From contig LR990730.1 in assembly GCA_905142475.1 (NCBI GenBank), positions 1,302,001 through 1,366,000 of the forward strand: a DNA stretch of 64,000 nt, in the 5' to 3' direction. The notes beneath the pieces are model-generated. The model did not search any database. It was not told the origin of the DNA and worked only from the letters and a program-made list of their open reading frames with translations. This document shows positions 3,001 through 15,066 of this stretch, one piece after another (the first letter of the stretch is position 1; each line of letters starts with the position of its first letter). Both the position numbers and the translations under genes were made by a program. This DNA is from Xanthomonas hydrangeae. Its GTDB lineage: Bacteria > Pseudomonadota > Gammaproteobacteria > Xanthomonadales > Xanthomonadaceae.

Positions 3001-3431
3001 CGTTGCTCAAGGACACCAACGGGCTGGGCTTTGTGCGGCTGCAATTGCTCGATCGCGATGCGGTCGTGCGCTCGCGCAATTTCTACTGGGTGGCACGCGA
3101 TGCGGCGGCCATGCGTGGCCTGGATGCGCTGGCGGCAGTGCCGGTGCAGCTCGGCACGCAACTACAGGAGGGTGCCGAGCCGGTGCTGCGCGCCACCGTG
3201 CGCAATGCCTCGCAGCAGGTGGCGCTCAACACCAAGCTGACCCTGGTGGACGCGCAGGGCCAACGCATCCTGCCGGCGTACTACAGCGACAACTACCTCA
3301 GCCTGGTGCCGGGCGAGCAGCGCGAGGTCGAGATTCGCGGCCCGTCCGCGGCGAGCCTGCGCAACGCCACGCTGCAGGTGCGCGGCTGGAATGTCGAACC
3401 ATCAACAGGCGTCGCCAGCGGGCTTCCGTAG
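3..3431 (+). CDS. GH2 family glycosidase with N-terminal LamG-like domain (5' end cut by window)
   Basis: A large secreted or periplasmic glycosidase of family GH2, closest in layout to exo-beta-glucosaminidase or mannosylglycoprotein endo-beta-mannosidase. Residues about 20-190 look like a concanavalin/LamG sandwich. After a linker come the sugar-binding sandwich (WWYRSHFDLP, FNGINYAGEVWVNG), the immunoglobulin-like domain (EGWDWIPAVRDRNAGLW) and the TIM barrel. The acid/base is probably E752 in WFGRNEG and the nucleophile E810 in FSVEVGTPS. The frame is open to the window edge and the first residues resemble the end of a signal peptide, so the true start is probably upstream. The TonB receptor gene begins 139 bp after the stop, which suggests a carbohydrate-utilisation locus. 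The family is clear; the substrate (beta-mannoside or glucosaminide) is inferred. Confidence 0.85.
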   Translation: MVCGCMAWAAVEAAPVDVQSPGPYDVRVLAGGMGLAKKLAVDAPLLAADADWSMSGWVRPSRANAGPALIAGLGDPKSAGRYFAIDNGRLAFVQGADTVLRSKQALPAGTWTQVAAVARSGRLTLYANGRQVASGAVRQSAVAPVLMFGPREQPTAYTQHFGGEIAGFLAHSAALDAPAIAQLAAKAPDQALQRFEDASPAWQVQVRQMAGQVAPQAPATLPRSAAAFSAPVAKPVQPRPALQPLDVAAWRVGVWELAAAPELGQATGASLSRGDDSGAAAAWHVATVPGTVLTTLVDRGVYPDPDIGLNNMAIPESLSRQDWWYRSHFDLPAAAQGKRLELLFNGINYAGEVWVNGTQVGRTRGAFARGRFDVSKQLKAGRNIIAVRISPPPHPGIAHEQSMTAGVGENGGVQALDGPTFIASEGWDWIPAVRDRNAGLWQDVQLHATGPLALGDTRVVTTRLAPDHRRAELEISVPLRNDSAAAVQGTLQLAVGDVRIQRQVNVPAGGTTLTLSAADTPELVIANPRLWWPNGYGEPALYTLQASVEVAGTPSDMQQLRFGIREVSYELSLFDQDGALRRVLVDFNKARQRGERIVDARHSAIRPVPGGDAQSFYPGAQASPAVTPLSDDALAPYLAIRINGVRIAVKGGNWGMDDWRKRVSRERLEPYFRLQRDAHFNVVRNWVGQNTEASFFELADEYGMLVLNDFWQSTQNYNMEPADAALFLDNAAEVIKRFRNHPSIVLWFGRNEGVPAPILNEGLDALVAELDGTRWYTGSSNQVNLQGSGPYNYREPVGYFNALAQGFSVEVGTPSFSTLESFKASVPAAQDQWPISDAWAYHDWHQSGNGDTASFMRSLTDKLGAPTSLEDFERKAQLLNYDTHRAIFEGFNAQLWTKNSGRLLWMSHPAWPSNMWQIYSHDYDTHAAYYGVRNAAEMLHVQMNLPGHEVVVVNNASDPVRGLRVRAEVYSIDGALLQQREQAVDAAPVAVSAPVLHLAPLLKDTNGLGFVRLQLLDRDAVVRSRNFYWVARDAAAMRGLDALAAVPVQLGTQLQEGAEPVLRATVRNASQQVALNTKLTLVDAQGQRILPAYYSDNYLSLVPGEQREVEIRGPSAASLRNATLQVRGWNVEPSTGVASGLP

Positions 3432-3570
3432 CGGCGCCGACAGGTTGCCACGCCGTGCCCGCACGGCGGTCGCACTGATGCGCCGATCGCGCGTCAGCCA
3501 ATACCGCATTGCCGTTGCTGCAATGCCATTCGAAACGGTTGTGGATTGTCGTCATCCCTGGGAGGGGACC

Positions 3571-6507
3571 ATGAACAAGCTGCATTGGAACACCCGCCAC
3601 ACCCCACTGGTCGCCGCACTCGCGGCTGCACTCACCCTACTGGCCGGCAGCGCAAATGCACAGGACGCCAGCACTGCCGCCGGGGTCACCGACCTGGACA
3701 AGGTCATGGTCAAGGGCGTGCGCGGCGCGCAGGCCGAGGCCATCGAGAACAAGCGCACCGCCGCGCAGATCATCGACTCGATCTCTGCCGAGGACATCGG
3801 CAAATTGCCCGATGTCACCATCACCGACTCGCTGCAACGTGTGCCCGGCGTGCAGATCCGGCGTTCGGCCGGCGAGGGCTCGCAGCTCAATATCCGCGGC
3901 ATGCCGCAGGTGCAGACCACCATGAACGGCGAGTTGTACCTGAGCGCCGGTGGCGGCGACCAGTACGGCCAGCCGAACATCGGCCGCGCGCAGCCGGATT
4001 TCGTCGACATCCCGCCGACGCTGTTCAGCGGCGTGGACGTGATCAAATCGCCGACCGCCGCGGACCTGGATGGCGGCATCAGCGGTACCGTCTCGCTCAA
4101 GACACGGCGCCCGTTCGACCTGCCCGAAGGCTGGACCTTCAGCGGCCAGGCCGAAGGCTCCTACGGCGACCGCGTGCAGGAACTCAACGAACTGTACTCG
4201 GGCCTGGCCAGTTTCCGCACCGAGCGTTGGGGCGCGTTGCTGGCGGTGTCGTATTCCGATGCCACGCTGGAGAACAAGCATCCCAGCGTGTATTCCAATG
4301 GCGCGCAGAAATCCACCGAGCAGAATGTGGGTTTCGATTTCAACGGCGACGGGCGCATCGGCAGCAATACCGATCCGTCCAACCTGCCGCGCGACTATTT
4401 CTACAACTGGGTCGCCACCGAACTGGACAACCGCAGCACCGACCGCCAGCGCACCGGCATCAACGGCTCGTTCCAGTTCAACATCAACGATTCGTGGACA
4501 GTATTGGCCGATGCGGCCTACACCAAACTCGAAGATCAGGACACCTCCGTGGCCGCGCAGCTGCATACCGGCTGGGCAACCAATCAGCTGCAGCCCGGCT
4601 CCATAGTCGATCCCAATGGCGTGCTTGAATATGGCCAGTTCCGCTACAACCGTTTTCAAGCCCATTCCATGGCCGGTGTGGCCGATTCGAATGCGTTGAA
4701 CACCAATCTGGAACTGCGCTTCGACGATGGCGGCCCGTTTCGCGCATCGTTCCGTTGGGTGCACGGCGATGCCGAGCGCACCTACGACGAAGCGCGTGCC
4801 GATGCGGTGGTGACGCGCGGCGACCAGATCACCCGCGCCGGCGGCGTGACGCAATGGGCAAACGCCAATGGCTTGCCAACCGTGGACGCCTCGGTGGATT
4901 TCCGTGGCACCTATCCGGCGGTCAACCTCGGCACCGATGTGTCCAACCCGGACAACTGGCAGCTGATGTCCACCTGGGCGCAGGGCAACAAGATCGAAGC
5001 GACGATGGATGCGTTCCGCGCCGACGGTACTTTCGAGTTCGACGAGGGCGTGGTGCGTGGCTTCCAGTTCGGCATCCGTTATGGCGAGCGCGAGGTCAAG
5101 CTGGATACCTATCGCTATCTCTCGCCGGTGTCGACCGGCTGCGCAGACCCCAACCGCTCGCTGTATTACTTCAAGGATCCACTGATCGTGGATACCTGCA
5201 GCGGTGTCTCCGAAGCGCGCCTGCTGCCGTTCAATTCGATTCCCGGTTATTGGGCGTACTTCAACGATTTCGATCCGCTCAAGGTCACCGGCCTGGGTAG
5301 CCAAGGCCTGCCGGCGATCAACCCGCAGGTCATGAAGGACCCGGTGGCCTATCTCAATAGCCTGTACCCGGGCAATGTGGCGTACCAGCAGGCCTCCGAT
5401 TCGTACAAGGTCACCGAAAAGAGCACCGCGGCGTACTTTCTGGCCAATCTGGAAGGCGGTACCGGCAGTGCGGTGCCGTGGACGGCGAACATCGGCGCCC
5501 GCATCGTGCAGACCAAGCTGGCGATCGATCAGTATCTGAGCAGCGGCAATGTGTTTATCGGCAATGTCGAATGGAACGGTGTCAGCCCGGCGATCGGTAC
5601 CAATCGATTGAACCGCCAATACACCGACGTGCTGCCCACCGCCAACCTGTCGCTGGACATCAGCGATGCGCAGAAGCTGCGTTTTGCCTACAACAAGGCA
5701 GTGGCGCGTCAGGATCTGCCCGATCTTGGGCGTGGCCTGGTGAGCTTCTATGCAGTCAATGGCACGCCGCCGCGTGATCCCTCGCTGCCTTCGGATGCGG
5801 TGTTGTTCCTCAACGGACGCTCCGGTAACCCGGATCTGGATCCGTACCGCGCCACCAACTACAACGCCTCGTGGGAGTGGTATTTCGCCGATGCCTCGTT
5901 GATCAGCGTGGGTGCGTTCCTCATCGATGTGAAGTCGTTCCCCACCACCGTCACCAACATCGAACTGCTCCCCGATGCGGACGGTGTGGTACGCGCAGGC
6001 GGGCCGGTCGAGCGCATCGTCAACGGCGGCGGCGGCAAGATCAAGGGCTTCGAAATCGGCTACCAACAGGCCTTCGACTTCCTGCCCGGCTGGCTCAGCG
6101 GCTTCGGCACCAACATCAACTACACCTTCTCCGATGCCGACACCGACAACACCGATATCGACGGCAACACGCTGCCGATCGGCGACAATTCCAAGCACCA
6201 GGCCAATGCGGTGCTGTGGTACCAGAAAGACAAGCTGCAGGCGCGCGTGGCCTACAACTGGCGCAGCAAGCGCTTCAGTCAGGTCAACAGCTCGGCGTGG
6301 GGCGATGAGCTGGCGATCTGGAACGATGATGTGGGCTATCTGGATGCATCGCTCAGCTACGACGTCAACGATCACCTGACGCTCTACGCGCAGGCCACCA
6401 ACCTCACCGGCGAAAGCGAACGCCGTTACGCGCAGTGGACCAACCACTACTTCGATCAGAACATCTTCGAGCGGCGGTATTACGCAGGTCTGCGTCTGCG
6501 CTTCTGA
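3571..6507 (+). CDS. TonB-dependent receptor, Xanthomonas/Caulobacter type
   Basis: Outer-membrane active transporter of 978 residues. It has a signal peptide ending in a run of Ala and ANAQ, then a plug domain (IGKLPDVTITDSLQRVPGVQI, then RRSAGEGSQLNIRGM) and a long beta-barrel ending in YYAGLRLRF, with the terminal Phe expected for BAM recognition. Length and motifs fit the oligosaccharide receptors expanded in Xanthomonas and Caulobacter. The start at 3571 is chosen because a strong Shine-Dalgarno (gggagggg) lies just upstream and a signal peptide follows; the open frame extends to 3391 but overlaps the GH2 gene. With the GH2 enzyme upstream and the GH6 enzyme downstream it probably imports plant-derived oligosaccharides, though the ligand cannot be read from sequence. 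Confidence 0.92.
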   Translation: MNKLHWNTRHTPLVAALAAALTLLAGSANAQDASTAAGVTDLDKVMVKGVRGAQAEAIENKRTAAQIIDSISAEDIGKLPDVTITDSLQRVPGVQIRRSAGEGSQLNIRGMPQVQTTMNGELYLSAGGGDQYGQPNIGRAQPDFVDIPPTLFSGVDVIKSPTAADLDGGISGTVSLKTRRPFDLPEGWTFSGQAEGSYGDRVQELNELYSGLASFRTERWGALLAVSYSDATLENKHPSVYSNGAQKSTEQNVGFDFNGDGRIGSNTDPSNLPRDYFYNWVATELDNRSTDRQRTGINGSFQFNINDSWTVLADAAYTKLEDQDTSVAAQLHTGWATNQLQPGSIVDPNGVLEYGQFRYNRFQAHSMAGVADSNALNTNLELRFDDGGPFRASFRWVHGDAERTYDEARADAVVTRGDQITRAGGVTQWANANGLPTVDASVDFRGTYPAVNLGTDVSNPDNWQLMSTWAQGNKIEATMDAFRADGTFEFDEGVVRGFQFGIRYGEREVKLDTYRYLSPVSTGCADPNRSLYYFKDPLIVDTCSGVSEARLLPFNSIPGYWAYFNDFDPLKVTGLGSQGLPAINPQVMKDPVAYLNSLYPGNVAYQQASDSYKVTEKSTAAYFLANLEGGTGSAVPWTANIGARIVQTKLAIDQYLSSGNVFIGNVEWNGVSPAIGTNRLNRQYTDVLPTANLSLDISDAQKLRFAYNKAVARQDLPDLGRGLVSFYAVNGTPPRDPSLPSDAVLFLNGRSGNPDLDPYRATNYNASWEWYFADASLISVGAFLIDVKSFPTTVTNIELLPDADGVVRAGGPVERIVNGGGGKIKGFEIGYQQAFDFLPGWLSGFGTNINYTFSDADTDNTDIDGNTLPIGDNSKHQANAVLWYQKDKLQARVAYNWRSKRFSQVNSSAWGDELAIWNDDVGYLDASLSYDVNDHLTLYAQATNLTGESERRYAQWTNHYFDQNIFERRYYAGLRLRF

Positions 6508-6521
6508 TTCGGTTGCATCGT

Positions 6522-6557
6522 TGTGCGACACAGCGCACCCGCGCGCTGTGTCGCACA
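6522..6557 (+). terminator. Perfect 15-bp hairpin after receptor gene
   Basis: tgtgcgacacagcgc at 6522-6536 is exactly complementary to gcgctgtgtcgcaca at 6543-6557, with a 6-nt loop. It starts 14 bp after the receptor stop codon. There is only a weak T tract, so it may stabilise the 3' end or terminate transcription imperfectly. Confidence 0.65.
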
Positions 6558-6631
6558 TGTTTCGTGCTTGTCACTCTCCAAGCGGCCATTGCGTCTTCTT
6601 CCCGTCGCCGTTAGTTGCGGCGCTGCAGTAC

Positions 6632-6697
6632 GCCCGACGGAAACGTCGGGCACCCTCCCATTCGGCCGCATCGTCGGGAAGCGATGCGGCCATTTTT
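6632..6697 (+). terminator. GNRA-loop hairpin plus intrinsic terminator (possible small RNA end)
   Basis: A gcccgacg/cgtcgggc stem with a gaaa tetraloop (6632-6651) is followed by a second stem ggccgcatcg/cgatgcggcc (6664-6691) and then attttttg. The second hairpin with its T run is a textbook intrinsic terminator on the + strand. Because another hairpin already follows the receptor gene, these two could be the 3' half of an independent small RNA. Confidence 0.6.
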
Positions 6698-7196
6698 TGT
6701 GCGTGATGGCACATACATTTGCGTAGTAATGCCGGCAGTTGAAATGCCGCTGCGGCCAGTGTCTGGATCTGTGTTCAACCGCAATGTTTGACGATTGCGT
6801 CTACCAGGTATGCGGCGTAGTTTCCGCATGGCGAGTCCAGCACCACTCGCAGGCACAGCAGCAATGCTGCTCGCTCATTCGCTCCCTGGAGATACTCCGC
6901 ACATCACAGAGGCAACGGCCGCGAAGATAATGGCGTGATGTCGCTGTTTGTCTCTACAGACGCTGAGGGCTTGGGTGAATCGTTCCAGAAAGCAGGGCAG
7001 GCCATGTGGTCTGAGTTCCTGCCTGGGCGTCACCGATTGTTGCCATGCAAATCTCTTCGGCCTGGCGCTGATGGAGTGGTTTTGCTTGGCTTGAGAAATC
7101 TCTAATGGATGCCTCAACGAAGGAAGGATCGCAGGCCACCAAAGGCAGTGCTGTATTCGAATCCCATAAAACCCATCAAAAACCAAGGTGAATATT

Positions 7197-8882
7197 ATGA
7201 AATCCAGCAAAAGCATCCGTCGTCACTTCAAGCGCACGATGGCGCTATCGCTGTTGGTTGTGAATCCATTCCTTGTGGCAACTGTTTGCGCTCAGGTGCA
7301 TGTCGATAACCCTTTCGTCGGTGCGACCGGCTATGTCAATCCTGATTACGCAAAGAAGGTCGATGCATCGATTGCGAAGGTGAACGGTGCGCCGCTGAAG
7401 GCCAAGATGGGCGTGGTGAAGACCCTTCCCACTGCAGTCTGGCTGGATCGTATCGATGCGATCGCTGGCGGTTCGAAAAATGCAGGCCGTCTCGGCCTGA
7501 GAGCCCATCTGGATGCGGCATTGGCACAGAAAAAAGCAAATACGCCCATCACGGCCAGCTTTGTGATCTATGACCTGCCTGGGCGTGATTGCCACGCATT
7601 GGCCTCCAACGGCGAATTGCCTTTGATCCAGGCAGCCCTGGAGCGTTACAAAAAGGAATACATCGACGTCATTGCCGCCGTGTTTGCAGATCCGAAATAC
7701 AAGGAGATCCGCATCGTCAATGTGATCGAACCGGATAGCCTGCCCAATCTGGTGACCAATCTAAACGATATGCGCTGTGCGCTGGCAAACTCCACCGGGA
7801 TTTATGAAGAGGGCATCAAGTACGCCATCAACAAGCTGCATGCCATTCCAAATACCTATAATTATCTGGATATTGGCCATTCCGGCTGGTTGGGGTGGGA
7901 CAGTAATCGCGGCCCGACCATCTCGCTGTATACCAGAGTGGTTCAGGGCACAAGCGCAGGGCTGGCAAGCGTGGACGGGTTTGTCACCAACACTGCAAAC
8001 ACCACGCCGCTGAGCGAGCCCAACCTGCCCAATCCCGAGTTGAGCGTGAATGGGCAGCCGATCAAATCGGCGAAATACTACGAATGGAATCCCTATTTCG
8101 ACGAGACCGATTTTACCCAGGCGTTGTATAGCGGTTTCGTCAGCGCGGGTTGGCCAGGCACGATCGGTTTCATTATCGACACGGGCCGCAACGGGTGGGG
8201 TGGGCCGAATCGCCCCACTGGCGCGTCGGGCAGCGATATCAACACGTACGTCAATGTGGGTCGCATCGATCGTCGTTTCCACCGCGGCAACTGGTGTAAT
8301 CAAAGTGGTGCAGGCATTGGTGCCCTGCCGGTCGCGGCGCCAGCCCCGCATCTGGATGCGTATGCGTGGGTCAAGCCGCCGGGTGAATCCGATGGTTCCA
8401 GCACCCTCATTCCCAACAACGAGGGGAAAGGCTTCGACCGCATGTGCGACCCCACCTATACGACCGCCGATAACGTGTTGACCGGCGCCCTGGCAGGCGC
8501 ACCGATTTCCGGTGCGTGGTTCCACAACCAGTTTGTCGAGCTGGTCAACAATGCCTACCCGGTGATCGGGACGGCCAGTACTACGTTGGCTGCGCCGGCA
8601 CCAATGGCCGCGCTGACTGCAACACGCGGCCTCACCGCCACAGTTGGCGACAGCCGAGTGAAGCTGAGCTGGTCTCCGACGCTGGGCGCAACCAGCTATA
8701 CCGTGAAACGTAGAGCCGGTGCCGCAGATGCCTTCACAACGGTCGGTTTCAATGTCGCATCCACGTCGTATACCGATCAGGCCGTCAGCAATGGCGTGGC
8801 GTATGACTACGTGGTGACGGCAAATAATCAGGCAGGCGCGCGTGTGGATTCGGCGGTGGTGAAGGCCAGGCCGCTGCGGTAA
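7197..8882 (+). CDS. cbsA: GH6 cellobiohydrolase (CbsA type) with C-terminal fibronectin III domain
   Basis: Secreted exo-glucanase that releases cellobiose from cellulose chain ends. The 561-residue product has a basic Sec signal peptide ending near VCAQ. A GH6 catalytic domain spans roughly residues 40-455 (motifs VIEPDSLPNLVTN, GHSGWLGWDSN, IDTGRNGWGGPNRP, WVKPPGESDG, CDPTYT), and a fibronectin III domain (about residues 470-560, KLSWSPTLGATSYTVKRR) follows. Type II secretion is expected. ATG 7197 is preferred to GTG 7188 because aagg sits 8-9 nt before it. In Xanthomonas, presence of an intact cbsA is known to track with xylem (vascular) colonisation. No CBM is visible besides the Fn3 module, and no frameshift or truncation is seen. 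Confidence 0.9.
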   Translation: MKSSKSIRRHFKRTMALSLLVVNPFLVATVCAQVHVDNPFVGATGYVNPDYAKKVDASIAKVNGAPLKAKMGVVKTLPTAVWLDRIDAIAGGSKNAGRLGLRAHLDAALAQKKANTPITASFVIYDLPGRDCHALASNGELPLIQAALERYKKEYIDVIAAVFADPKYKEIRIVNVIEPDSLPNLVTNLNDMRCALANSTGIYEEGIKYAINKLHAIPNTYNYLDIGHSGWLGWDSNRGPTISLYTRVVQGTSAGLASVDGFVTNTANTTPLSEPNLPNPELSVNGQPIKSAKYYEWNPYFDETDFTQALYSGFVSAGWPGTIGFIIDTGRNGWGGPNRPTGASGSDINTYVNVGRIDRRFHRGNWCNQSGAGIGALPVAAPAPHLDAYAWVKPPGESDGSSTLIPNNEGKGFDRMCDPTYTTADNVLTGALAGAPISGAWFHNQFVELVNNAYPVIGTASTTLAAPAPMAALTATRGLTATVGDSRVKLSWSPTLGATSYTVKRRAGAADAFTTVGFNVASTSYTDQAVSNGVAYDYVVTANNQAGARVDSAVVKARPLR

Positions 8883-9299
8883 CGATTGCATCGTTCAACG
8901 TTGCGCCGCATACCGCCAGAGCAGGAGGTCTGGGGGTCCATCGCCCGCATGGTGATGACTGGCGAAGGCAGCGTGTGGTGTGGTCTCGCAGATTGACTTA
9001 GCCCATTGCCGCGTTGCTGATGTCCTTGAAGGGTCGGAGCTGGCGGCCGTAGGGTCGCCAGCTCCGATTTCATGGGGTTTGCGAAGTCGTTTACCTCAAA
9101 ACGAAGGATGGCTGGCATAGGCGTCGGGCATGGCTCGATCTGTGCGCGAACGCAGTTTTTCAGTGTTGTACCAGCCATCTTTGCAGCGTAGCGTCCTGGT
9201 GGCGGGCACAACCATTGTTGTTCGCGTGCAAGAACCAAGCGTTGATCGTCGGTAAAAAATCCCCCGAAAGGGCAATCCCTCCCAGCAGGATCTCGCATC
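8883..9299. other. Intergenic region upstream of the small peptide gene
   Basis: No protein gene is supported. It contains the hairpin at 9034-9067 after cbsA and, closer to the peptide gene, a small cccc/gggg-type stem around 9261-9273. A promoter for the peptide gene must lie here or read-through from cbsA occurs; I see no clear -35/-10 pair. Confidence 0.4.
9034..9067 (+). terminator. 12-bp hairpin downstream of cbsA
   Basis: tcggagctggcg (9034-9045) pairs perfectly with cgccagctccga (9056-9067) around a 10-nt loop and is followed by a short ttt. It probably terminates cbsA transcription or separates it from the peptide gene. Confidence 0.5.
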
Positions 9300-9380
9300 A
9301 TGAAGATGCTTTTTTCGATCAAGCACATGTTGGCCTCCAAGAAGAGTCTCAAGTCCTACGCCTGGTACATCTGGTACTGA
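9300..9380 (+). CDS. Putative atropopeptide (tryptorubin-type) RiPP precursor, C-terminal core AWYIWY
   Basis: A 26-codon ORF (ATG 9300, TGA 9378-9380) with a good ribosome site: agcagga ends 9 nt before the ATG. The first 20 residues are a basic leader (MKMLFSIKH at the start, KKSLKS later) and the last six are exactly AWYIWY. That hexapeptide is the known sequence of tryptorubin A, an atropopeptide of Streptomyces whose aromatic side chains are cross-linked by a cytochrome P450. A P450 gene begins 98 bp downstream, so the pairing expected for this RiPP class is present. What is seen: the ORF, the ribosome site, the core and the P450 neighbour. What is inferred: that the peptide is expressed, cross-linked and cleaved. 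No protease or exporter gene is visible next to it. Chance occurrence of the same six aromatic-rich residues at the extreme C-terminus before a P450 is very unlikely. Confidence 0.82.
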   Translation: MKMLFSIKHMLASKKSLKSYAWYIWY

Positions 9381-9423
9381 GTTCAATTCAGCATTCGTGC
9401 TGATGCGATGTTGGTAGTTCCTC

Positions 9424-9458
9424 GCCCGCGCGAGGTGAGCGTGTTGCCAAGCGCGGGC
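9424..9458 (+). promoter_or_regulatory. Hairpin between precursor and P450 genes
   Basis: gcccgcgc (9424-9431) pairs with gcgcgggc (9451-9458) around a 19-nt loop, in the 98-bp gap between the peptide stop and the P450 start. There is no T tract. Such a hairpin could act as a partial terminator or an mRNA stabiliser that keeps precursor transcript above enzyme transcript, as in many RiPP operons. Confidence 0.4.
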
Positions 9459-9478
9459 GTTATCGAGCGGAGAGTCCC

Positions 9479-10520
9479 ATGCCTGTGCTGACTGCCGATG
9501 GGTTTGCGCGCACCACCGTAGTTTGCGCCGCGTTTGCAGGCGCTGTTGGGCGAGCACATAGGCAAGGACGTGTTTCGATTGGATGCCGATACCGTGGGTG
9601 TGGCCGGGCCATTGCTGACGCACAGGTTGCTCGACGCGCGCCCGGCGACCGAGATTGAGCGGCCCACGTTCAAGCCGCTGCATGGCCGTTCGATTCCGCG
9701 CACCGATGCCTCCAAGCTGATCCAGGCGATTGGGCGTGACGTGCGCGAAGCATTGAAGCAGCCCGTGTCGGCGCAGGTGAATCTGTCTGGTCCATGGCCG
9801 CAGGTGGGTCACCTCTATCTGCGCGATTTGCTGTTGGCTGGCGATCCGTTACGGCTGCGCGTGCTGATGGACCGTATTCTTGAGCTGACGCCCAAGTTGA
9901 CCTGGGCCGTCATAGCCACAGGTGCCTTGATGCCATTCAAGCTGCAGCAAAGCGCCTCGGCGCTTGCCACATTGACCGCTGCGGCCGGCAACTACGATGA
10001 GCGCCGCTATGCGATGGGGTTGTATCGACGCACTGCCGCGCCGGTGTGCTTCACCATTTCCACCTTGGTGGCCAATGCGCTGTGGCTGGGATCGCCATTC
10101 GACCCCGCAGTGCCCAGCCGCCATCTGGTCTACGAGTCGCTGCGGTTGCTGCCGCCGTCGTGGAATATCTTGCGCAACGCATCGCCGGAATATCCCGCAC
10201 TCGATGGACGCATCGGCACCCAGGACGATGTGCTGGTACTGCCATTGCTCAGTCATCGCGATCCCGTGCTGTGGGAGGCGCCGGAAGCGTTTCGGCCAGA
10301 GCGTTGGGACCACCTGGATCCTGACAAGCACCCTGGCTATCTTCCGTTCGGGCACGCGTCCGAGCGTTGCTGGGGGCGGCATATGGTGATGCCATTGGCC
10401 GAGCGCCTGCTGGACGCACCACGCAGCCAGGGTCTGGTCGCCAGCCCGAAGCAGCGCAAGGCAGTGGTGCCGTTGACCGGTCTATTGGGCGTTGCGCAGG
10501 TCGATGTGGTGCGTGGATAG
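9479..10520 (+). CDS. Cytochrome P450, likely RiPP cross-linking enzyme; apparent +1 frameshift near the start
   Basis: The heme protein frame runs from 9522 to the TAG at 10518-10520. It contains the K-helix ExxR (YESLR), the meander motif FRPERW and the heme loop FGHASERCWG, whose Cys codon is 10368-10370. The heme loop has Ala where Gly is usual. The I-helix region (APVCFTISTLVANALW) lacks the usual acid-Thr pair, which fits P450s that couple aromatic rings rather than hydroxylate. The best start is ATG 9479 with ggag 6 nt upstream, but it is in another frame. It reads MPVLTADGFARTTV and would join the P450 frame if the G at 9521 were absent; an in-frame TAG (9519-9521) closes the P450 frame upstream. 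The only start in the P450 frame is a TTG at 9534 without a ribosome site. So the gene is frameshifted, recoded, or carries a sequence error. At about 346 residues it is short for a P450. Confidence 0.8.
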
Positions 10521-10721
10521 ACGCGCACGGCAGCACTGCTTTCCTAGGCTTCGTTGCGATGTTGTAGGGGCGTAGCGCAGCGTCGATCTGTGTCGGTGAT
10601 GCGCCGATGACATGCTGATCGATCGTGCATTGCACGATGCGATGTAGTGGTGCCGATCCTGCAGCCGACGCGTGGCCCGCAGACGCAGCGGTGTGAGCCT
10701 GTGCGTCCGTGTGCCGATGCA

Positions 10722-11774
10722 TTACGCCTGATGCGGCCCAGCCGTGGAGCCACGCTTCACCAGCGTGTACTTCATTACCTGATGCACGCCTTGTGTGGCA
10801 TCGCCCTTGCGCCGTTGGCGGATCGCATCGGCGAGCAGCGACACTGCGGCGCGGCCCATCGCGGTGACCGGTTGATGCACGGTGGTGAGTTCGGGCCAGA
10901 CGGTGGTGGCGACCGGGGTGTCGTCGAAGCCGGCCACCGATACATCTTCCGGGACGCGCAAGCCCAGCCCGTGTGCCACCGCCACTGCGGCAGCGGCCAT
11001 ATCGTCGTTGCTGCAAAAGATGGCGGTGGGCGGTTGCGCTTGTGCGAGCAGGCTGCGTGCGGCGAGCAGGCCGGAGCGATAGGTGAATAATCCCTCGGCG
11101 ACCAACGCGTCTGCGACCGTCAAACCCGCAGCCTGCAAGCTGTCGAGATAGCCATTGGCGCGTAATGCGCTCGGGGTGTGCTTGGGGTCGCCCTTGATCA
11201 AGGCGATGCGGCGATGGCCCAGTTCGATCAGATGATCGACGATGGCGCGCGCAGCCTGATAATCGTCGATGCGCACCGAGCTGATTTGCGCCATCGGCGC
11301 GCCGCTGGCCACTGCGACCACCGGGATGCCGCGTGCATCGAGTTCAGCGATGGTCTGGCGCGAATCGCATAGCGGTGGCGGCAATATCACGCCGTCCACG
11401 CCTGCGGCGAGCAAGCGCTCGGTCGCGGCACGTTGGCTGCGGATGGCGCCGCATTTTTCCACCAGCACCTGGCTGCCATTGAGGCTGCTCTGTTCGAGCA
11501 AGCCGAGCATGAATTGATTGAGATAGGCGGCGCTGGGATTGCTGTACAGCACACCGATACGCAACAGACCGCTGGTGCGTAACGAGCGGCCGGCCAGGTT
11601 CGGCCGGTAGCCCAATGCCTGCACCGAGGCTTCCACGCGCACGCGCATGTCTTCACTGACATGCGGGTGGCGGTTGATGACGCGCGAGGCGGTCATCGGC
11701 GAGACGCCAGCGTGTTTGGCGACATCCAGCAGAGTCGCTGCAGTGTTCGCACTGCGTTGCCGCTTGGCCGCCAT
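10722..11774 (-). CDS. LacI-family transcriptional regulator
   Basis: A 350-residue LacI/GalR-type repressor. The N-terminal helix-turn-helix with hinge is clear (TLLDVAKHAGVSPMTASRVIN, then a hinge ending YRPNLAGRSLRT). A periplasmic-binding-protein-like effector domain follows (IGVLYSNPSAAYLNQF, DGVILPPPL, ALIKGDPKHTPSALR, FCSNDDMAAAAVAVAHGLG, VAGFDDTP). It lies alone on the minus strand with the P450 gene convergent on its 3' side. Its ligand is probably a sugar. The nearby GH2, receptor and cbsA genes are plausible targets, but no operator could be assigned by eye. Confidence 0.9.
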   Translation of the reverse strand: MAAKRQRSANTAATLLDVAKHAGVSPMTASRVINRHPHVSEDMRVRVEASVQALGYRPNLAGRSLRTSGLLRIGVLYSNPSAAYLNQFMLGLLEQSSLNGSQVLVEKCGAIRSQRAATERLLAAGVDGVILPPPLCDSRQTIAELDARGIPVVAVASGAPMAQISSVRIDDYQAARAIVDHLIELGHRRIALIKGDPKHTPSALRANGYLDSLQAAGLTVADALVAEGLFTYRSGLLAARSLLAQAQPPTAIFCSNDDMAAAAVAVAHGLGLRVPEDVSVAGFDDTPVATTVWPELTTVHQPVTAMGRAAVSLLADAIRQRRKGDATQGVHQVMKYTLVKRGSTAGPHQA

Positions 11775-11888
11775 TGTGTGTGTTCGTCCTGGAGTGGAAG
11801 CGAAAGGGCAGGTGGTGCGCTTGAAGTCTGCAGCAACTCAAAACATGCGTCGCCGCAGGCCATTGGCGCTGTCGATGTTCGCTAGTGA

Positions 11889-11921
11889 CACAGATAACGC
11901 ACAGCGTGCGCGTCATCTGTG
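11889..11921 (-). terminator. Imperfect hairpin downstream of the M28 peptidase gene
   Basis: cacagat at 11889-11895 faces atctgtg at 11915-11921, with further partial pairing (acgc/gcgt) inside. It lies 47 bp past the peptidase stop codon and upstream of lacI, where a terminator for the leftward peptidase transcript is expected. No T run on the minus strand is obvious. Confidence 0.3.
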
Positions 11922-11967
11922 CCGCCTGTGCTCAACCGACGTCCGCCCGCAACGTCTTCAAACGCAT

Positions 11968-13386
11968 TTACTCGCTCGGTGGCTGCACAACTTTCGCGCG
12001 ACTACCGAAATCGCCATCCGCCTCTGCCGCCAGATACGCAAACACGGTGTAGGCAGCCACGTTTTGCGCGAGCGCTTTCGGGTCGATCTTGTCCAGGGTG
12101 TCGTCGGCGGTGTGGTGCAGATCGAAGTAGTCGGTGCCGTCCTGCGCCAGCCATGCCCAAGCGCCACCCTTGGCCGAGATCGGGCCGACATCCGGGCCGG
12201 GGCCGCCCTTGCTAGGCTCATATGCGATACCAAGCGGTGCCAGCACCTCGGCGATTTGTTTGGTCGCTGCGCGCGACTCTTCCGGTGCCGCCGAGCCGGT
12301 GTTGAACGCATAGATACGCCCGGCGCCGAAGTCGCTCTCCGCGCCGATCTGATGCAGCGCCATGTCCTTGGCATCCTTGCCGTGTGCGGCCGCGTATGCT
12401 TTGCCGCCATACAGGCCTTGCTCCTCGTTGGCGAAGGCCACCACGCGAATCGTGCGCTTGGGCGCCTGCTTGAGTTGGCCGATCAAGTGGCCCGCGGCCA
12501 TGGTGATCGCAACGCCGGCACCATCGTCGATCGCACCGGTGCCCAGATCCCACGAATCCAGATGCCCGCCGATCACCACCACTTCCTTCGGCTTGCTGCG
12601 CCCGGTGATTTCGCCGATCACGTTGTACGAGGTCGCCGTGCCATCCCAACCGCAATCCAGTGCCAGCCGCAGACGCGTGCTGCCCAGCGCGGTGAGCCGC
12701 GCGAGCTGATTGGCGTCCGGTACCGACAACGCCGCTGCCGGCACCGGCGTCACGCCTTCATCGAAGCGGGTGATGCCGGTATGCGGCACGCGATGCGAGT
12801 CGGTGCCGGCCGAGCGCATCACAAACCCGATCGCGCCCTTGCGGATCGCTTCCGATGGGCCCTTGCTGCGCACCGCGCCGCCATTGCGGTAATCCTTCCC
12901 GTCGCGCGCCTTGGTCATTTGATAATCGACAAATGCGATCTTGCCGGTCAACGAGCCGGCCGGTGCAGCCTGCAACGCAGCGAGATTTTCAAAGCGCACC
13001 ACCTCGCCTTCGACGGTGCCGCCCGGGCTGCCGCCCAGCGCGGTGATGTGCAACGGCTGCGCATGCGCGCCGATCACCGTGGCCTGCTCGCTGCGACGCT
13101 GCCACTTGGGAAACGTCACCGGCTCGGTCCACACCTTGTCGAAGCCCAGCGCGGTGAATTTGGCCTTGGCCCAGGCCACCGCGCGCGGATCGGCTTCGCC
13201 GCCGGCAATCCGCGGGCCCACTTCGGTGGTCAACGATTCCACCACTGCAAAGCCGGTGCTGTCGGCCAGCGCCTGTTCGCGCAGCTGTGCGGCGGTGCGC
13301 AGCGCGCTATCGGCGATGGTGGTTGGTGCGGCCAGCGCGGGCGCGCAAGCGAGTAGGGCAGAGATGGCGACAGCGAGACGACGCAT
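11968..13386 (-). CDS. Secreted M28-family zinc aminopeptidase
   Basis: A 472-residue exported peptidase. The signal peptide (MRRLAVAISALLACAPALA) supports the start at 13386 rather than the longer open frame reaching 13935, which runs over mscL. A PA-like insert occupies the region about residues 120-260. The zinc-binding motifs of M28 are present in order: GGHLDSWDLGTGAIDDGAG (His and bridging Asp), ANEEQGLYGG (general base Glu plus Glu ligand), ESDFGAG (Asp) and HHTADDTLDKID (last His). It probably acts in the periplasm or outside the cell, removing N-terminal residues or acting as a carboxypeptidase-Q-like dipeptidase. Substrate preference cannot be read from sequence. Confidence 0.9.
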   Translation of the reverse strand: MRRLAVAISALLACAPALAAPTTIADSALRTAAQLREQALADSTGFAVVESLTTEVGPRIAGGEADPRAVAWAKAKFTALGFDKVWTEPVTFPKWQRRSEQATVIGAHAQPLHITALGGSPGGTVEGEVVRFENLAALQAAPAGSLTGKIAFVDYQMTKARDGKDYRNGGAVRSKGPSEAIRKGAIGFVMRSAGTDSHRVPHTGITRFDEGVTPVPAAALSVPDANQLARLTALGSTRLRLALDCGWDGTATSYNVIGEITGRSKPKEVVVIGGHLDSWDLGTGAIDDGAGVAITMAAGHLIGQLKQAPKRTIRVVAFANEEQGLYGGKAYAAAHGKDAKDMALHQIGAESDFGAGRIYAFNTGSAAPEESRAATKQIAEVLAPLGIAYEPSKGGPGPDVGPISAKGGAWAWLAQDGTDYFDLHHTADDTLDKIDPKALAQNVAAYTVFAYLAAEADGDFGSRAKVVQPPSE

Positions 13387-13496
13387 GCAGGGCGGCTCCA
13401 ACGACAAGGGGGACCCCGAGCTTATCAGCGCGAGGTCCCCCGTCTGCGTGCGAAAGGTCATCCTCCTGCGCGAAGTTGTGCAGTGGATGTGTCCGC

Positions 13497-13928
13497 TTAC
13501 GGCACGCCTGGCGTCTTCAGCGTGTCGTTCTTCAGCGAGTCGCGAATCTCGCGCAGCAGCAGCACTTCTTCGCTCGGGCCTTTGGGAGCATCCGGTTTGC
13601 GCTGGGTGAGGCGGTTGATCAGCTTGACCACCAGAAAGATCGCAAACGCAATGATCACGAACTGCACGACGGTGTTGATGAAATCGCCATAGCCAATCGC
13701 CACGGCCGGGATTTCCTTGCCGGTAGCATCGACGCCGGCCGGTTTGAGCACCCACGCCAGCCGCGAGAAATCCACATTGCCGATGGCCCAGCCGATCGGC
13801 GGCATGATGATCTTCTCCACCAGCGCGGTGACGATCTTGCCGAACGCCGCACCGATGACCACACCGACCGCCAGGTCGATGACATTGCCACGCATCGCGA
13901 ATTGCTTGAATTCGCTGACCATTCCCAT
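13497..13928 (-). CDS. mscL: Large-conductance mechanosensitive channel MscL
   Basis: The 143-residue channel opens under membrane tension to release osmolytes. The family features are complete: N-terminal amphipathic helix [23 protein letters not shown]1 glycine-rich pore ([11 protein letters not shown]), periplasmic loop, TM2 ([19 protein letters not shown]) and a cytoplasmic helix bundle with [16 protein letters not shown] 13928 is chosen because ggag lies 6 nt upstream; an alternative ATG lies two codons later. It sits 110 bp upstream of the M28 gene in the same direction and is probably transcribed alone. Confidence 0.96.
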
Positions 13929-13988
13929 AGCGCACTCCTGATGCGGTCGCGGACCAACTGCCGCAATGAGATCGTAGCGGGCTGCATG

Positions 13989-14702
13989 TCAGCCCGCGAT
14001 GATGCCGTGGCGCTCGGCGACGTTTTCCAGGCGGGCGCTGAACTGATCGCCGGGCAGCAACGGGCCGACACCGGCCGGCGTGCCCATGAAGATCAGATCG
14101 CCCGCGCGCAATGCATAGAGCTTGGAGAGCTCATGCAGAATCTCCGGCACATTCCAGATCATCTGATCCAGCAGCGATTGCTGGCGCACTTCACCATTGA
14201 CCTCAAGCGACAGATTCAACGCGTCCAGCGCGCCTACCTCGCCGGCATGCACCAGCTCGCTGACCGGCGCGGAATGATCGAAGCCCTTGGCGATGTCCCA
14301 CGGCAGGCCCTTGGCTTTGGCGGCTGCCTGCAGATCGCGACGGGTCAGATCCAGTCCCACGCCGTAGCCATAGATCAAGGTTTCGGCCTGATCCACCGGC
14401 AACTCGCCGGCCGGCGCATCGCGGCCCAGCGCCACCACCAGCTCCACTTCGTGGTGCAGTTCCTTGGTACCGGGCGGATACGGAATGTGGTCGCCGTGAC
14501 CGACCACGATTGCGTCGGCAGGCTTCATGAAAAACGTCGGCTGGCCGCGTTCGGCTTTGGAGGCAGGCGCGGTGGCGCCCATCTCGCGCGCATGATCGGC
14601 GAAGTTGCGGCCCACACAGTAGATGCGGTGCACCGGAAAGTTGCCGCCACCAACCACCGGAATGCGCGGAACATCGGCGGCGGGAATCACATCGTGGGTC
14701 AT
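13989..14702 (-). CDS. Fumarylacetoacetate hydrolase (FAH) family protein, YcgM/fumarylpyruvate hydrolase-like
   Basis: A 237-residue cytosolic hydrolase or decarboxylase of the FAH fold. Seen are IYCVGRNFADHAREMG, FFMKPADAIV, the metal ligands in HHEVELVVALGRDA, the GYGVGLDLTRRDLQ segment, KGFDHSAP and the C-terminal GTPAGVGPLLPGD loop. These match the short prokaryotic YcgM-like group, which acts on acylpyruvates or fumarylpyruvate and can show oxaloacetate decarboxylase activity. ATG 14702 starts the conserved part; a longer frame upstream reaches 14867 but has no support. No aromatic-degradation genes are adjacent, so a housekeeping role is more likely. Confidence 0.88.
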   Translation of the reverse strand: MTHDVIPAADVPRIPVVGGGNFPVHRIYCVGRNFADHAREMGATAPASKAERGQPTFFMKPADAIVVGHGDHIPYPPGTKELHHEVELVVALGRDAPAGELPVDQAETLIYGYGVGLDLTRRDLQAAAKAKGLPWDIAKGFDHSAPVSELVHAGEVGALDALNLSLEVNGEVRQQSLLDQMIWNVPEILHELSKLYALRAGDLIFMGTPAGVGPLLPGDQFSARLENVAERHGIIAG

Positions 14703-14790
14703 GCACGCATCCTTGGGGAACGGGACGCGTGAGTCTAGCCGTTTGGCGGTGTACGACAACACCGTCTGCGCGTCATGCGCGCAGCGTCGC

Positions 14791-15066
14791 TCAGTGCGAC
14801 AACGGCAACGCGGGCTTGCGCACCACGCGGTATTCGGCTTCGACCACGCGCGCTTGCTGCGGCGCACGTCGATTGGACTTGCTCAACAATTTCCAGGCGA
14901 TGCCGCCCAGGATCATGGCCGCACCGACGAACACGCTGAAGAAGATCAACACCGCAAGAATGACCAGACCCGCCAGACCCGCAGCAACGCGCACCAACGG
15001 GTGACGCGGTTTGCGCGGTGCAAACAGGTGGTGAATGTTGCCGAATTGGAAGATGCGTGCGGGCAT
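14791..15066 (-). CDS. Small hydrophobic membrane protein
   Basis: A 91-residue protein with a short basic N-terminus (RKPRHPLVRVAAG), a long hydrophobic stretch (LAGLVILAVLIFFSVFVGAAMILGG would form one long or two tightly packed helices) and a basic tail (SKSNRRAPQQARVVEAEYRVV). No family is recognised. It has the codon pattern of a real Xanthomonas gene and lies 88 bp upstream of the FAH gene on the same strand. Function unknown. Confidence 0.65.
   Translation of the reverse strand: MPARIFQFGNIHHLFAPRKPRHPLVRVAAGLAGLVILAVLIFFSVFVGAAMILGGIAWKLLSKSNRRAPQQARVVEAEYRVVRKPALPLSH

What the first reader, a model, noticed from the sequence alone, without database searches (positions are those of the whole stretch)
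9300..10520. Tryptorubin/atropopeptide-type RiPP locus in Xanthomonas
A 26-codon gene with a good ribosome site ends in AWYIWY, the exact hexapeptide backbone of tryptorubin A, and is followed 98 bp later by a cytochrome P450 gene. Atropopeptides are known from actinobacteria as P450-cross-linked aromatic RiPPs. Here the pair lies on the chromosome of a plant pathogen beside cbsA and a sugar-uptake locus. The core identity, C-terminal position and P450 partner together make chance unlikely. No dedicated peptidase or exporter is visible, so maturation would use host enzymes. I cannot tell from sequence whether this locus has been described in Xanthomonas.
Basis: partly seen in the sequence, partly recalled or inferred. 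Interest (0 to 1): 0.93.

Follow-up and report, generated by a model that had tools for sequence, protein, structure and literature searches.

The report
Known peptide-crosslinking locus, enzyme gene broken
This Xanthomonas genome carries a genuine two-gene locus of a known kind, a tiny peptide plus an enzyme expected to tie its aromatic rings together, but the enzyme gene looks broken here and such loci were already known in Xanthomonas.

Summary
The 26-residue ORF (9300-9380) matches NCBIfam NF038372, "tryptorubin family RiPP precursor". Behind it lies a P450 of the atropopeptide type, 99% identical to Xanthomonas sp. Leaf131 and up to 73% to Streptomyces. Two corrections. First, Xanthomonas is not a new home: AtropoFinder (PMC11450843, 2024) names Xanthomonas as a main holder. 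Second, the P450 is broken here: its ATG is in another frame than its body, while the ATG is in frame in 8 of 8 genus genomes with an open P450. Of 35 genus genomes, 8 have an open P450, 5 (window included) a broken or partial one, 22 no match. The pair occupies a fixed slot between a TonB-receptor gene (or cbsA) and lacI. The P450 is far closer to Leaf131 than its neighbours are (fourfold sites 2.6% against 8.6-21.2%), which suggests recent recombination. A peptidase gene beside lacI is there in 30 of 30 loci, 17 of them without the RiPP, so it looks like a bystander. Most likely this strain does not make the cross-linked peptide; a sequencing error is not excluded.

The parts
9287..9290 (+). 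Shine-Dalgarno-like AGGA, 9 bases before the precursor ATG
   Evidence: Read from sequence; AGGA in 8 of 8 aligned rows
9300..9380 (+). Atropopeptide (tryptorubin-family) precursor gene, 26 aa, KSLK at residues 15-18, core AWYIWY at the C-terminus
   Evidence: NF038372 49.9 bits, cut-off 33; over cut-off in 10 of 35 genus genomes, own included
9381..9478 (+). Intergenic stretch of 98 bp with a G+C-rich inverted repeat (arms about 9423-9431 and 9451-9459)
   Evidence: Fold of 9378-9482: -38.9 kcal/mol, z only -1.33, 22 of 200 shuffles fold as well; both arms can be made out in 8 of 11 aligned rows. Function not shown
9479..9521 (+). 5' end of the P450 gene, out of frame with the body
   Evidence: in frame in 8 of 8 other open copies
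9522..10520 (+). Body of the atropopeptide-type cytochrome P450 (residues 15-346 of the Leaf131 homologue), with the stretch FGHASERCWGR taken (from recall) as the heme-ligand motif
   Evidence: Pfam p450 45.7 bits; 99% identity to L015; tree; motif in alignment
10722..11774 (-). LacI-family regulator gene, conserved border of the slot, convergent with the P450
   Evidence: Pfam; found in 30 of 35 genus genomes, all 30 over at least residues 1-347 without stops
7188..8882 (+). GH6 (cbsA-type) gene, other variable gene of the same slot
   Evidence: Pfam Glyco_hydro_6; presence/absence
3391..6507 (+). TonB-dependent receptor gene, other border of the slot
   Evidence: Pfam
11968..13398 (-). M28 peptidase gene, probably a chromosomal bystander
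   Evidence: Pfam PF04389; beside lacI in 30 of 30 loci, with or without the RiPP

Best explanation
This is an atropopeptide (tryptorubin-family) RiPP locus in a presence/absence slot of the Xanthomonas chromosome. Where the pair is intact, the leader helix and KSLK motif are expected to hold the precursor on the P450, which joins aromatic side chains of the C-terminal core; a general protease then frees the peptide (mechanism published for Streptomyces members, inferred here). In this genome the precursor is intact but the P450 has lost its reading frame near the start. Translation from the natural start cannot give the enzyme, so the mature peptide is probably not made: the locus is in an early stage of decay, as in other species of the genus. 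Shown by calls: family, synteny, the frame break in this assembly, other broken copies, the excess similarity to Leaf131. Inferred: cross-linking, protease, loss of product, recombination.
For: NF038372 match. The P450 body sits in a clade of 19 Xanthomonas rows (SH-aLRT 98) among atropopeptide-type P450s. Frame break, against an in-frame ATG in 8 of 8 open copies. The precursor and six neighbouring genes (the TonB receptor only in part) align to Leaf131 without gaps or stops. Three amino-acid changes in the body against Leaf131: at two of these sites the other 18 Xanthomonas rows agree, at the third 17 of 18; the window's Pro and Val are seen in 0 of 86 other rows (its Ile in 3 of 86). 5 of 13 genomes with a P450 match have a broken or partial copy, while lacI shows no stop in 30 of 30. 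Fourfold divergence from Leaf131: P450 2.6%, six neighbours 8.6-21.2%.
Against: One assembly only, so a sequencing error cannot be excluded; PMC11450843 reports that apparent P450 fragments in the lau locus were a sequencing artefact. The window has three further one-base length differences to Leaf131 in the non-coding stretch 9072-9297, one of them in a run of A. The body has 10 synonymous against 3 amino-acid-changing differences, so the break, if real, is recent. The tree rests on two flanking genes that may themselves recombine, and its three-state count (10 changes) is not clearly below shuffled labels (mean 11.6, as low in 33 of 200).
Confidence: 0.72

Rival explanations
1. The frame break is a sequencing or assembly error and the locus is an ordinary working atropopeptide pair.
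For: Single assembly; precursor intact; heme-motif stretch intact; three further one-base length differences to Leaf131 close by in non-coding DNA; a precedent of artefactual P450 fragments in the lau locus.
Against: At the break a length change lies next to a substitution, which is not the usual look of a run-length error; the precursor and six neighbouring genes keep their frames against Leaf131; three unusual amino-acid changes in the body.
Confidence: 0.2
2. The P450 is still made from a downstream start (TTG at 9534) or by frame slippage.
For: A TTG lies in the body frame; only 18 residues of the Leaf131 protein would be missing.
Against: I see no ribosome site before 9534 by eye; the lost stretch holds bases conserved among the aligned relatives. 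Slippage was not tested.
Confidence: 0.07
3. The 26-aa ORF is a chance match.
For: It is very short.
Against: 0 of 100 simulated windows hold the motif; the family rings in 0 of 14 control genomes but in 11 of 35 genus genomes, at the same place by lacI in all 11.
Confidence: 0.005

Closest known systems
Tryptorubin A/B and the lau and trp atropopeptide clusters of Streptomyces
   Same: Short precursor with KSLK motif, core WYIWY (LauA, PMC12352619), a P450 that installs three cross-links (passages)
   Different: Proteobacterial host, fixed chromosomal slot, P450 frame broken in this genome
Xanthomonas atropopeptide loci mined by AtropoFinder (PMC11450843); Pseudomonadota precursors such as XaaA and XamA (PMC12352619)
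   Same: Same family; same genus for the first
   Different: AtropoFinder started from RefSeq proteins annotated as P450; the window copy is frame-broken. Whether this very locus is in their supplement was not checked (no supplement look-ups allowed)
cbsA neighbourhoods of PMC7673761
   Same: Gene gain and loss by homologous recombination between conserved flanks
   Different: The main text has 0 hits for P450; here a RiPP pair is a second variable gene set in a slot that can hold a cbsA-type gene. Which of that paper's neighbourhood types this slot is was not established

Membership tests
Atropopeptide (tryptorubin) RiPP | Precursor with KSLK (or a listed variant) and a C-terminal aromatic core | tested here: met
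   NF038372 over cut-off; KSLK at residues 15-18; motif list from PMC11450843 section 8
Atropopeptide (tryptorubin) RiPP | Adjacent atropopeptide-type P450, by descent | tested here: met
   Body falls among P450s whose loci mostly carry matching precursors
Atropopeptide (tryptorubin) RiPP | P450 gene with an open reading frame | tested here: not met
   5' end out of frame; the window copy is therefore called a member by descent that is probably inactive
Atropopeptide (tryptorubin) RiPP | Cross-linked peptide product (minus 2 H per bond, atropisomeric) | not testable with these tools
   Needs LC-MS and NMR
Locus-specific maturation protease | Protease gene that co-occurs with the RiPP pair | tested here: not met
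   M28 gene beside lacI in 30 of 30 loci, 17 of them without any P450 trace; no match to it in L091, which has the RiPP

The most novel reading that the evidence does not exclude
The slot between the TonB receptor and lacI is an exchange site in which a cbsA-type gene and an atropopeptide pair are swapped in and out by recombination across Xanthomonas species, and the P450 is repeatedly inactivated first while the precursor lingers, because the cross-linked peptide is a liability in some hosts or niches.
Probability: 0.15. Interest if true: 0.55.

Novelty: new member of a known kind. Interest (0 to 1): 0.3.

Why it matters
It corrects the reading of this locus: not a new home for tryptorubin, but a probably decaying copy of a family already charted in the genus. 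It suggests that the published protease association in Xanthomonas may be a neighbour effect, and that mining that starts from annotated P450 proteins could overlook loci with a frame-broken enzyme. PMC12352619 (2025) says that no atropopeptide had been reported from Pseudomonadota, so the intact Xanthomonas loci remain worth testing.

Tried and rejected
PIP-box search: 37 matches at up to one mismatch against 36.95 expected; the nearest, exact, lies at 9081-9105 but on the minus strand, and none lies on the + strand upstream of the precursor. Promoter scan of 8880-10760: 0 sigma-70-like sites. Rfam on 6500-12000: no match. Intergenic hairpin: folds, but z is only -1.33; no covariation test was run. 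Phage origin: one weak match (28% of the query, 35% identity) among 50,697 records. Plasmids: 18 records match, Streptomyces 16 and Embleya 2, at 67-70% DNA identity over at most 53% of the query. Solved structures, searched with the open Leaf131 P450: 14 sequences at E <= 1e-5, best 9ulw_A at 8.4e-11, all partial. NCBIfam ApyO is a weak match far under its cut-off (62.2 of 525 bits), so I do not call the P450 an ApyO. No structure was predicted.

Rows dropped: L018, L086 and L088 (broken or partial P450s) were left out of the P450 tree; 86 of 89 chosen loci plus the window were used. L146 was not chosen, being beside L145 in the same genome. Five of 35 genomes have no lacI match at E <= 1e-120, so their site was not examined; they have no P450 match either. 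One search kept the best 80 of 85 relatives and may leave out very near genomes. The limits 9420-10520 for the similar stretch were chosen after seeing the mismatches, so its p-value is too good. The first count of gapped codons did not see bases extra in Leaf131; it was repeated by protein alignment.

Full report
What is there. The window lies on a 5.36-Mb contig of a 5.58-Mb genome; its nearest named relatives by the P450 are Xanthomonas. The species was not determined. The ORF at 9300-9380 encodes 26 residues ending in KSLKSYAWYIWY. NCBIfam names the family: NF038372, tryptorubin family RiPP precursor, 49.9 bits against a cut-off of 33. Chance is very unlikely: 0 of 100 simulated windows hold the motif, and the family rings in 0 of 14 control genomes.

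Distribution. The precursor family is found in 11 of 35 genus genomes at E <= 0.001, own included, 10 over the cut-off; in 13 of 297 genomes drawn from the family, in 2 of 54 genera; and in 1 of 398 drawn from the phylum, the window's own.

The P450. The body (9522-10517) is a P450 (Pfam, 45.7 bits). A scan kept 80 of 85 relatives, mostly Streptomyces and allied actinobacteria at 53-73% identity, with Xanthomonas at 70-99% and a few other proteobacteria. On a tree of 87 rows the 19 Xanthomonas rows form one clade (SH-aLRT 98), and with two Luteibacter and one Burkholderia record a clade of 22 (98) among actinobacterial lineages. The tree is a quick one, rooted at the midpoint, so a transfer from actinobacteria is an inference.

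The P450 is broken here. The Leaf131 homologue is one open frame of 346 aa; the window matches its residues 15-346 in one frame and its first residues in another. In the eight other genus genomes with an open P450, an ATG lies in frame at the matching distance in 8 of 8. Among the ten relatives aligned, two (L018, L086) are in frame at the start but broken further on. The precursor and six neighbouring genes, the TonB receptor only in part, align to Leaf131 without gaps or stops. The body carries three amino-acid changes against Leaf131. At two of these sites the other 18 Xanthomonas rows agree, at the third 17 of 18; the window's Val and Pro occur in 0 of 86 other rows, its Ile in 3 of 86. 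This looks like a gene that has recently stopped being kept. A sequencing error is not excluded; the window also has three one-base length differences to Leaf131 in non-coding DNA at 9072-9297.

The slot. 13 of 35 genus genomes have a P450 match. Eight copies are open. Five are broken or partial: the window, one with an internal stop, one split over two frames, one without its first part, and one remnant of 39 residues. lacI was found in 30 of 35, with no stop in any. Of these 30 loci, 17 have no P450 trace: 11 have the TonB receptor directly beside lacI, 5 have the cbsA-type gene there, 1 is arranged otherwise. In 8 of the 11 empty sites the match to the window ends at 6708-6713 and resumes at 10733. 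In three loci outside this set (L020, L021, L091) the lacI side is conserved but the other side does not match the window. On a tree of lacI and M28 DNA the three states (open, broken, none) need 10 changes (shuffled mean 11.6, as low in 33 of 200), and "none" alone needs 7 (shuffled mean 10.1, as low in 15 of 500): loss or exchange is frequent, with some clustering of empty sites.

Recombination. Over 9420-10520 the window and Leaf131 differ at 15 of 1101 positions, against 6.0% in the rest of 4529-15028 (limits chosen after the fact). Fourfold sites differ at 2.6% in the P450 and at 8.6-21.2% in six neighbouring genes; the precursor has 0 of 7. On the flank tree the window sits with three genomes whose site is empty rather than with Leaf131 (97/97). 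The simplest reading is a recent exchange of this stretch between lineages. PMC7673761 (passages and sections 9 and 10 seen) describes cbsA moving by homologous recombination between conserved flanks; its main text has 0 hits for P450.

Protease. PMC11450843 (section 11) reports a frequent association of proteases with atropopeptide P450s in Xanthomonas. Here an M28 peptidase gene (11968-13398) lies beside lacI in 30 of 30 loci, 17 of them without the P450, so it does not track the RiPP. The text seen does not name the protease, so this may or may not be the gene meant.

What is known. PMC11450843 (2024) gives the KSLK motif list, names Xanthomonas as a main genus, suggests that the tryptorubin A core arose several times, and reports lau products at m/z 895.3760 and 824.3401 (passages and sections). 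PMC12352619 (2025) tested seven Pseudomonadota precursors with ScaB, of which five were modified (abstract and passages). Paper searches; tryptorubin with Xanthomonas gave 2 records, 1 listed, PMC11450843. Supplements were not available. That tryptorubin A has the sequence AWYIWY is recalled; the passages seen call it a hexapeptide and give LauA as WYIWY.

Verdict. A real member by descent of a known family, in a genus where it is known, with the enzyme gene probably broken in this genome. Interest is modest; the variable slot and the repeated decay are the parts worth following.

Noticed in passing
window 7188-8882: GH6 (cbsA-type) gene with a sub-threshold fn3 match (18 of 25 bits); a match at E <= 1e-60 in 21 of 35 genus genomes, in 6 of them only at 65-69% identity.
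   Followed up: partly
window 9423-9459: G+C-rich inverted repeat between precursor and P450, with arms visible in 8 of 11 aligned rows; possible control of the precursor-to-enzyme ratio, untested.
   Followed up: partly
L016 and L086: Loci of X. vasicola and X. axonopodis have changed cores (SWGLYM, and AWSNYM beside a broken P450) where the window has AWYIWY.
   Followed up: no
L091: Xanthomonas sp. GPE 39 has two precursors (ends SWPHWY and AWEGYISY) before one P450.
   Followed up: no
L036: A record titled Burkholderia multivorans WS-FJ9 carries an atropopeptide pair with core AWYLWY; contamination or transfer, not tested.
   Followed up: no
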